A stretch of DNA of 64,000 nucleotides, from the NCBI GenBank assembly GCA_001563335.1, contig LRSL01000058.1, positions 1-64,000 of the forward strand, read 5' to 3'. Source of the DNA: Candidatus Thorarchaeota archaeon SMTZ1-45. GTDB taxonomy: Archaea > Asgardarchaeota > Thorarchaeia > Thorarchaeales > Thorarchaeaceae. The notes beneath the pieces are model-generated. The model did not search any database. It was not told the DNA's origin and was given only the letters and a program-made list of their open reading frames with translations. Positions 28,890 to 31,475 of the stretch are shown piece by piece (positions within the stretch are counted from its first letter, which is position 1; each line of letters begins with the position of its first letter). The position numbers were made by a program, and so were the translations under genes.

Positions 28890-30710
28890 TTATGATTTTA
28901 CTTCAGCTTCTGGTTCAGCAACTTTCAAACAGCTGAATCCATATTCACCTTCAAAGGATATCTCCGCGCTTTCGCTTGGAGTTATTGTCAAAACTACTAA
29001 ATACTTTTTAACTACTTCAGGATTTGCATCAGACACTTCATAGCTGCCATTTGTTAGTGCTATCTTATGTCCAGTTTTCAGTGTTCCGAGTTCAGGATGA
29101 TTCCCAATAGCAATAGCAATCCGCGTTTGCAATTTATCATTCCTAACAACAAGCATCTCAACATCATCAATTGTTTCAAGTGAGAGGACATCCATCCAAC
29201 CTGTAAGTTCTTTCTTCAACTTTTTCTGATCAACAGGTCCACTAGTAGTCATACCTTCAACGGATGGGAGCTGCCCTTGAATTTCGTTCAGAATAGGTGT
29301 TATTTGTGAAGTATTCCAGCCTTTCTTGACGAAAGCCTTCAATGCATGTTCTGCAATCTTCTCTAGAGCTGGTTTGAATCTATCATGTGAGGATGATGAA
29401 ACCTTGTAAAGCATAAGGAATGAACCTAGTGCTCCTTCCTCTTTGTTGTAAGCAACACCAATTTTGTACGCTGTTACAGCCAATTGCCATGCATTGTCAT
29501 GGTCATCAAACTGGATAGAGTACTTTGCTATATCGTTCAGCATTGACATAGTTACCTCTGGATATTGCAGTTTATTCTTTGTTAGACTGAAACCTCCCAT
29601 GAACTTCCTAAGGATTTGCATGGTGATATACAGTCCTTCTGAAGTTTCTAACATACTTGTTAGACCAATTCTATTGATCATACTATCGTAAAGACTATAG
29701 TAATAATCAATTTCTTCATAGTCCTCCCTAATAAGAGCAAGAACAATCCTCACAAAAAAGACGGTGGCTTTTAGTTCGTCGTTACTCACTTCCGCAAACA
29801 TAAGCAATCTGAATGCTTCATCACTAATTATTAGTGCGTCTTCGATTCCTTGTCTAGTTCCTCGGTAAAGGTGACAAATTGTTTCAAGATAGTAGAGAAA
29901 GAGTGTAAGGTCGGATGCATGCCTGACAAGCTGCCCATGTGTTTCACTGTCTTCAGTCAGAGTTGATACTATCAAAAGTCGTTCAATCTCATTCTGAACT
30001 GCTTCAATTTCATGAGCAAGACTGTCATACTTGCCTTCTCTGAAGTCATCGAACATGTTTGGGATATCTGCTTTGATATCCTCGAGGAAATCAAGCACGA
30101 AAAGTGGCTGACCTTTGGACAACTTTCTATCAAGCCCTTCTGCTGGCCTCTTGACTGACCTTAAAACACGAAGAGCATGATCCTCGATGATACGGATCCT
30201 TGTGACAGGGTCGTATGACTCCTGTCGTGCGATGCTATACCGGACCTCTTCAGAATAGATGCGGTCTCTGATTATTGACAGGTCCTTCTTCAGTTTTTCA
30301 TCCTCTACGGATTCCATCAATTCTAGCACAAATGCTGAACCAACTATACCCTCAACATCGACCTTTAAGTCTTGGATAGTGTTAAGCAGTCTCAAATCGC
30401 TTGTGACAATCTTTGACTTCCTGTTTCGCATTGCGCCTAAAATCAGAGACATATCATTTGGCTGAGGCAGTGAGGATTCAGGGAGAGTAATACTATTAAT
30501 GAATGATTTGATATCCTTTGAGAGCGTTTCATCGATTTGGACAATATTCTCTGCTTCACGACGCAAATACCACCGTAGTTCCTGAAAGACCTGTCTTGTT
30601 ATCCATAGTTCCATTCCTGCATTATCTGCGGCCTTTTTCACAATAGTGACATCTTTCGGCCGCTCTGAAAAGCCTGATATGAAGAAGTTCGCGTCCAAAT
30701 ACACACGCAT
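28890..30710 (-). CDS. PIN-domain protein with long helical C-terminal region
   Basis: N-terminal MRVYLDANFFISGF...QVFQELRW...PQPNDMSLILGAM...KIVTSDLRLL matches the PIN acidic-residue pattern; helical repeat-like C-terminus. Confidence 0.7.
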   Translation of the reverse strand: MRVYLDANFFISGFSERPKDVTIVKKAADNAGMELWITRQVFQELRWYLRREAENIVQIDETLSKDIKSFINSITLPESSLPQPNDMSLILGAMRNRKSKIVTSDLRLLNTIQDLKVDVEGIVGSAFVLELMESVEDEKLKKDLSIIRDRIYSEEVRYSIARQESYDPVTRIRIIEDHALRVLRSVKRPAEGLDRKLSKGQPLFVLDFLEDIKADIPNMFDDFREGKYDSLAHEIEAVQNEIERLLIVSTLTEDSETHGQLVRHASDLTLFLYYLETICHLYRGTRQGIEDALIISDEAFRLLMFAEVSNDELKATVFFVRIVLALIREDYEEIDYYYSLYDSMINRIGLTSMLETSEGLYITMQILRKFMGGFSLTKNKLQYPEVTMSMLNDIAKYSIQFDDHDNAWQLAVTAYKIGVAYNKEEGALGSFLMLYKVSSSSHDRFKPALEKIAEHALKAFVKKGWNTSQITPILNEIQGQLPSVEGMTTSGPVDQKKLKKELTGWMDVLSLETIDDVEMLVVRNDKLQTRIAIAIGNHPELGTLKTGHKIALTNGSYEVSDANPEVVKKYLVVLTITPSESAEISFEGEYGFSCLKVAEPEAEVKS

Positions 30711-30832: not shown

Positions 30833-31199
30833 ATAAGCATGCGAAATGACGATTAAAGGTTGCGATTTGGCATGAACTGGGATTTCAGGATCATTTTTCA
30901 TTCCTGTTTCCTATTTTGACCTAAAATGAGGATATACCCCAACATACCAATTCCTATCCATGCAATTGATTCGAAGAATTTTGAATAATAATTGATAGTG
31001 ATTGTCAAGTTGTTTACTATCTCAAAATTGAAAGAATCACCATAATTCTCCCCACATATCCAGGTATCTTACGTCGGAATGATTTGATCTCATTCTCTTT
31101 GAAGAATATAGACAATGAATTATGCCTCTAATCTAATCGCTCAAGAAATTAAGCAAACTTCCAAAAAAACACATGCCCACAGTCTTTTTATACGAGTAT

Positions 31200-31224
31200 G
31201 TGATATCATAATATGATATATCAC
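31200..31224. promoter_or_regulatory. dyad operator-like element near a TATA-like box
   Basis: GTGATATCATAATATGATATATCAC, imperfect palindrome just downstream of TTTTTATAC. Confidence 0.5.
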
Positions 31225-31475
31225 CTATAGCACGGTCAAGAGGCACGCTGGAGTTTCGCCAACCACAAGGGTTAACTGCGATTGTTCCCATCTCTTTACC
31301 AAACAAGGGCGTAGCATATTCAATGTGCGAGCCGATTAAGCTCTTTGGCGTGCGGAGCTTATCTTGCGATTAACTTCAAAATGGGTTCTTCGGAACGCGG
31401 CGCACAAAACATTAGGTGGTGGCGCGGCAATGCACCGCGTTGCTCGCACAGAGCTACGCCCACCCTCTCTTTCTT
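31225..31475 (+). ncRNA. candidate structured RNA (free ncRNA or long 5' leader), family unknown
   Basis: Long-range helices GGGCGTAGC (31307-31315)/GCTACGCCC (31453-31461) and TGTGCGAGC (31324-31332)/GCTCGCACA (31442-31450) enclosing three hairpins (TAAGCTC/GAGCTTA; GTTC-TTCG-GAAC; CGCGG/CCGCG); non-coding, GC-rich in an AT-rich intergenic region. Confidence 0.6.

What the first reader, a model, noticed from the sequence alone, without database searches (positions are those of the whole stretch)
31225..31475. Strongly structured non-coding RNA candidate of unknown family upstream of an ABC exporter
Two stacked long-range helices of 9 bp each, separated by an asymmetric internal loop, close a multibranch domain containing a 7-bp hairpin, a C(UUCG)G tetraloop hairpin and a CGCGG/CCGCG hairpin. 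Loop GTGCG (31350-31354) can also pair with CGCAC (31401-31405), a potential pseudoknot. It sits behind a TATA-like box and operator-like dyad and ~40 nt before the next ORF, so it could be a free ncRNA or a riboswitch-like leader. I did not find SRP (GNAR/AGCAG) or RNase P (GAGGAAAGUC, ACAGAA..CCGG) signatures.
Basis: partly seen in the sequence, partly recalled or inferred. Interest (0 to 1): 0.75.

Follow-up and report, generated by a model that had tools for sequence, protein, structure and literature searches.

The report
New structured RNA in Asgard archaea
An Asgard archaeon (Candidatus Thorarchaeota) and most of its relatives carry one gene for a roughly 250-letter folded RNA that makes no protein, matches no catalogued RNA family and keeps its shape through many matched mutations, so it is almost certainly a working molecule whose job is still unknown.

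Summary
The RNA is real. A sequence-only alignment of 24 homologues gives a consensus fold in which 32 of 46 pairs show compensatory changes. On 37 homologues, 34 of 43 pairs do, 95.8% of cells pair, and no shuffle of 500 reaches this. It has one copy per genome in 37 of 47 genomes of one family (Ca. Thorarchaeota) and was found in none of 185 other genomes of the phylum. RNase P and SRP RNA genes lie elsewhere in the same genome. Neither the window nor 15 homologues match any Rfam 15 family.

It is most likely a free RNA, not a leader of the ABC-exporter operon. A TATA-like box lies upstream in most relatives, and a pyrimidine tract follows an invariant CCACC. In several relatives an opposite-strand gene separates it from the operon, and the operon also occurs without it.

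The UUCG hairpin and the proposed pseudoknot are not. 'CGCGG/CCGCG' is part of a longer helix (P5) closing a loop that holds UAGGUGGUGGCGCGGCAA, kept in nearly all relatives.

Best guess at function (inferred): RNA subunit of an RNP, with three exposed conserved loops as binding surface. The gene's 3' end also looks like an integration site.

The parts
31185..31192 (+). TATA-box-like TTTTTATA, about 119 nt before the conserved core; similar boxes 107-154 nt before the core in most relatives
   Evidence: not found by the same regular expression in about a third of relatives
31200..31224 (.). Imperfect palindrome around the expected transcription start, with TAATAT (31209-31214) that recurs in relatives as TAATATRTCCTAWYA
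   Evidence: 0-2 exact sites per genome, mostly at this locus, so no regulon seen
31212..31475 (+). Proposed transcript of the ncRNA gene (5' end estimated about 25 nt after the TATA-like box; 3' end in the pyrimidine tract)
   Evidence: inference; ends not measured
31234..31300 (+). 5' hairpin; apex motif ACCacAAGggUUAACU (31262-31277) conserved in the genus and recognisable beyond
   Evidence: 72% of cells paired, covariation score above shuffles in all but 1 of 500, but count of pairs with double changes not above shuffles
31304..31467 (+). Conserved core (model R1), 43 base pairs in six helices
31307..31315 (+). P1 5' strand (pairs with 31453-31461)
   Evidence: 97.6% of cells paired, 6 of 9 pairs with double changes
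31453..31461 (+). P1 3' strand
31326..31332 (+). P2 5' strand (pairs with 31442-31448)
   Evidence: 6 of 7 pairs with double changes
31442..31448 (+). P2 3' strand
31334..31363 (+). P3 hairpin; loop with GGCGUGC invariant in all 24 aligned homologues
   Evidence: 7 of 9 pairs with double changes
31367..31392 (+).
   Evidence: 7 of 8 pairs with double changes
31394..31441 (+). P5 (31394-31403/31432-31441) closing a 28-nt loop with UAGGUGGUGGCGCGGCAA (31413-31430)
   Evidence: 8 of 10 pairs with double changes; loop split by an inserted hairpin in G024 and G224
31460..31475 (+). 3' end: invariant CCACC then pyrimidine tract, terminator-like; SRP RNA genes of six relatives also end stem-CACC-pyrimidines
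   Evidence: 18 of 31 loci at least 80% pyrimidine in the next 15 nt, against 2.8% of 15-mers in the surrounding regions

Best explanation
A single-copy gene for a free-standing structured non-coding RNA of about 250 nt, specific to the Ca. Thorarchaeota family. It is transcribed from its own TATA promoter and ends in a pyrimidine tract after CCACC. It folds into a 5' hairpin domain and a core in which P1-P2 close a multibranch junction that displays three conserved loops: GGCGUGC on P3, CAAAAU on P4, UAGGUGGUGGCGCGGCAA on P5. Shown: homology, covarying structure, copy number, distribution. Supported by sequence and context: independent transcription. Inferred: the loops are a recognition surface and the RNA acts in trans as the RNA subunit of a ribonucleoprotein, not as a cis-regulatory leader. 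A loop-loop contact P3 CGUGC with P5 GCGCG, or P5 GGUGG with the 3' CCACC, is possible in 35 of 37 sequences but does not vary and so cannot be tested by covariation.
For: Homologues in 37 of 47 family genomes, one each. Compensatory changes at 32 of 46 pairs in an alignment made without structure and at 34 of 43 pairs on 37 sequences; covariation score 0.645 against 0.262 shuffled and at most 0.13 when slid. RNase P and SRP RNA genes lie elsewhere in G000. No Rfam match for the window or 15 homologues. Pyrimidine tract after CCACC and a similar 3' end on SRP RNA. Opposite-strand genes between RNA and operon, and uncoupling of RNA from operon, in several relatives.
Against: No transcript data. 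Ten of 47 family genomes show no copy; for G003, G015 and G033 the operon contig ends near the operon, but G022 is 97% complete and G034 is one contig, so the RNA may be dispensable. In most genomes the RNA still sits upstream of the same operon, so a cis role in some species is not excluded. No partner protein or target was identified, and rRNA complementarity is no better than shuffled RNA.
Confidence: 0.62

Rival explanations
1. Riboswitch-like or other cis-acting 5' leader of the downstream operon (small secreted protein, FtsX/MacB-like permease, ABC ATPase).
For: In 15 of 25 genomes where the first operon gene was found, it starts within about 600 nt of the RNA core start, and in the window 50 nt after the RNA. 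Compact fold with conserved loops.
Against: Opposite-strand genes intervene in G014 (674-aa LRR protein), G013 (DUF2202), G016 and G225; RNA away from the operon in G020 and G024; operon without the RNA in G012 and G034. Terminator-like tract directly after the core.
Confidence: 0.1
2. A divergent copy of a known housekeeping RNA (RNase P, SRP, MRP-like, tRNA-like).
For: Single copy, size about 250 nt, 3' end CACC plus pyrimidines as in SRP RNA.
Confidence: 0.05
3. Antisense or guide RNA whose conserved loops base-pair with rRNA, tRNA or mRNAs.
For: Conserved single-stranded loops; a 13-nt match of AAUUAGGUGGUGG to 16S rRNA in G025.
Against: Longest rRNA duplexes are no longer than with shuffled RNA in three genomes; loops stay unchanged while the helices vary; no box C/D or ACA anatomy seen.
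Confidence: 0.13
4. Mobile-element RNA (for example integration-associated or transposon-encoded guide RNA).
For: Partial direct copies of its 3' end flank inserts downstream in G002, G006 and G031, with a HicA-like toxin gene pair inside in G031; the RNA-operon gap exceeds 600 nt in 10 of 25 genomes.
Against: Single copy at a conserved place in most genera; no TnpB, integrase or transposase recognised among the flanking proteins looked at; copies are partial, as expected if the RNA gene is the target and not the element.
Confidence: 0.1

Closest known systems
Orphan archaeal structured ncRNAs in Rfam such as HgcC and SscA (from own knowledge)
   Same: Single-locus, highly structured, lineage-restricted archaeal RNAs without assigned function
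   Different: No sequence or model match; different lineage and architecture
Candidate trans-acting structured RNAs from comparative genomics (PMC2864571)
   Same: Detected by compensatory changes; many restricted to one lineage; function open
   Different: Not matched by any Rfam 15 family; that 2010 study predates Asgard genomes
Archaeal SRP RNA (RF01857)
   Same: Free RNA of similar length with TATA-like promoter and 3' CACC plus pyrimidine tract in the same lineage
   Different: Separate SRP gene at G000:C24:47149-47457; no match between the two
Archaeal RNase P RNA (RF00373)
   Same: Single-copy free structured RNA
   Different: Separate gene at G000:C11:6966-7304 with 168.5 bits; no match at this locus

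Membership tests
Archaeal SRP RNA (RF01857) | Match to the covariance model; only SRP gene of the genome | tested here: not met
   No match here; SRP RNA elsewhere in G000, E 1.6e-19
Archaeal RNase P RNA (RF00373) | Match to the covariance model; only RNase P gene of the genome | tested here: not met
   No match here; RNase P RNA elsewhere, 168.5 bits
Any Rfam 15 family | Score at or above gathering | tested here: not met
   None in the window; best E 0.44, Gut-1, other strand, 18.6 against 50 bits; none at E up to 1 in 15 homologues
Riboswitch / cis-acting leader | Constant position in the 5' region of the same gene, same strand, no intervening gene | tested here: not met
   Opposite-strand genes between, or uncoupled, in several genomes
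Riboswitch / cis-acting leader | Ligand-dependent change of expression | not testable with these tools
   Needs in-line probing or a reporter
Box C/D or H/ACA guide RNA | Boxes RUGAUGA and CUGA near the ends, or ACA box after a guide-pocket hairpin | tested here: inconclusive
   Not seen on reading the alignments; no dedicated search, but Rfam scans gave no match
Structured, conserved ncRNA | Compensatory base changes in excess of column-shuffled and slid controls | tested here: met
Structured, conserved ncRNA | Discrete transcript | not testable with these tools
   No expression data held

The most novel reading that the evidence does not exclude
The core is the RNA of a ribonucleoprotein (or ribozyme) of a kind not yet described, present in one Asgard family next to its SRP and RNase P RNAs, with a fold whose exposed conserved loops form an active or binding site.
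Probability: 0.3. Interest if true: 0.85.

Novelty: new member of a known kind. Interest (0 to 1): 0.6.

Why it matters
Nothing was found in the literature library on structured ncRNAs specific to Thorarchaeota. A single-copy RNA that keeps dozens of base pairs by compensatory change across 12 genera, and that no catalogue holds, points to an unknown RNA-based function in a lineage studied for the origin of eukaryotes. It gives a concrete model (helices, loops, ends) that can be tested by RNA-seq, probing and pull-down, and a covariance model that can be deposited as a family. The 3' end also looks like an integration site.

Tried and rejected
SRP and RNase P identity. Rfam at relaxed thresholds for window and homologues. 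Operon-leader reading. Homologues outside the family by BLASTN, two covariance models and a DNA pattern: none. Complementarity to 16S/23S rRNA: not above shuffled RNA. Promoter-region motif as regulon operator: 0-2 exact sites per genome, off-locus sites not coherent. Viral-contig scans failed twice. A first alignment with unoriented loci was discarded.

Full report
What was checked. The window lies in contig C58 of genome G000. The stretch 31225-31475 folds to -82.2 kcal/mol against a shuffled mean of -74.3 (z -1.79, 13 of 200 shuffles as good). That alone would not be convincing.

Homologues. BLASTN finds the sequence in 26 of 59 genomes searched, all in the same family, nearly always once; the one second hit is the partial copy in G002 discussed below. 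A MAFFT alignment of 24 cores, made without structure, gives an RNAalifold consensus in which 32 of 46 pairs have at least one change on both sides. A covariance model of 162 positions finds 37 of 232 genomes of the phylum, all in the same family, one each. On the 37 sequences, aligned to the model, 95.8% of cells pair, 34 of 43 pairs have double changes, and the covariation score is 0.645 against 0.262 in shuffles and at most 0.13 when partners are slid. This second alignment was fitted to the structure and leans towards it; the first was not.

Distribution. No match was found outside the family with model R1 in 185 genomes, with models R1 and R2 at E up to 1 in a few dozen representative genomes, or with the pattern GGTGGTGGCGCGG-N(10-40)-GCCCACC in 185 genomes. 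That pattern occurs exactly once in each of 33 family genomes and never in the reversed control. Ten family genomes show no copy. In G003, G015 and G033 the contig with the exporter operon ends near the operon. In G012 and G034 the operon is there and 8-10 kb upstream holds no copy.

Anatomy. In window coordinates: P1 31307-31315/31453-31461; P2 31326-31332/31442-31448; P3 31334-31344/31354-31363; P4 31367-31376/31383-31392; P5 31394-31403/31432-31441. GGCGUGC in the P3 loop does not vary in the 24 aligned homologues; the P4 loop (CAAAAU) and UAGGUGGUGGCGCGGCAA in the P5 loop vary little. In G024 and G224 an inserted hairpin splits the P5 loop between UAGG and UGGCGCGGC, which suggests two separate elements. 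The 5' domain, 31234-31300, is a hairpin with a conserved apex; its pairs are only weakly supported.

P1, P2 and P3 hold. UUCG is present in only four of the 24 aligned homologues, and P4 is the covarying helix there. GUGCG/CGCAC is complete in 17 of 37 and competes with P5. Two other contacts, P3 CGUGC with P5 GCGCG and P5 GGUGG with 3' CCACC, are possible in 35 of 37 but show no variation and so are untested.

Ends. TTTTTATA at 31185-31192 and similar boxes in most relatives suggest a start near 31212. After the invariant CCACC, 18 of 31 loci have at least 80% pyrimidine in the next 15 nt, against 2.8% of 15-mers in the surrounding regions. SRP RNA genes of six relatives end in the same way, stem then CACC then pyrimidines. 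tRNA genes encode CCA followed by mostly pyrimidine-rich sequence.

Context. In most genomes the order is RNA, small secreted protein, FtsX/MacB-like permease, ABC ATPase. In ten of 25 genomes the gap between RNA and the first of these exceeds about 600 nt, while the operon itself stays compact. G014, G013, G016 and G225 have opposite-strand genes in the gap. In G020 and G024 the RNA is away from the operon. This argues against a leader.

Integration-site side finding. In G002, G006 and G031 a partial direct copy of the RNA's 3' end (33-51 bp) lies downstream. In G031 the roughly 490 bp between RNA and copy encode a HicA-like toxin and a HicB-like partner. This is what insertion at the 3' end of a conserved RNA gene leaves behind, as known for tRNA and tmRNA genes (established knowledge); no integrase was seen.

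Identity. RNase P RNA (C11) and SRP RNA (C24) are separate genes in G000. Nothing in Rfam 15 matches the window or 15 homologues. Searches of the paper library found no description.

Mechanism. Shown: conserved structure, single copy, family restriction. Supported: free transcript. Inferred: an RNP role with the exposed loops as binding surface. Complementarity to rRNA is not above shuffled RNA in three genomes, so a guide role has no support here. No partner protein was found.

Novelty. As a sequence and structure family it is undescribed in the sources searched. As a kind of thing (lineage-restricted orphan structured ncRNA) it has precedents, hence 'new member of a known kind'; whether its function is of a new kind is open.

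Limits. No expression data; metagenome collections were not searchable and viral-contig scans failed; genomes are mostly incomplete assemblies; E-values of the models are rough.

Noticed in passing
L191 (G002) about +2422, L192 (G006) about +2333, L208 (G031) about +653 from the RNA core start: Partial direct copies (33-51 bp) of the RNA 3' end lie downstream; those of G006 and G031 include CCACC and the T-rich tract. In G031 the roughly 490-bp insert encodes a HicA-like toxin (PF07927) and a HicB-like partner; in G006 it includes a Ras-like GTPase gene. The RNA gene's 3' end looks like an integration site, as tRNA genes are.
   Followed up: partly
L241, L245, L246, L247, L249, L251: SRP RNA genes of six Thorarchaeota genomes end stem-CACC-pyrimidine tract, like this RNA.
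   Followed up: partly
window 28890-30710 (-): Divergently transcribed 606-aa protein with an N-terminal PIN-domain match below the Pfam cut-off; its homologue lies next to the RNA in most same-genus genomes.
   Followed up: no
window 31200-31224: 25-bp imperfect palindrome over the expected start site; TAATATRTCCTAWYA recurs at this locus in relatives and hardly elsewhere.
   Followed up: partly
G000:C24:47149-47648: A tRNA gene (109-nt match, probably with intron) follows the SRP RNA gene within about 80 nt.
   Followed up: no
G034:C1:98364-101138: Permease homologue with one in-frame TGA.
   Followed up: no
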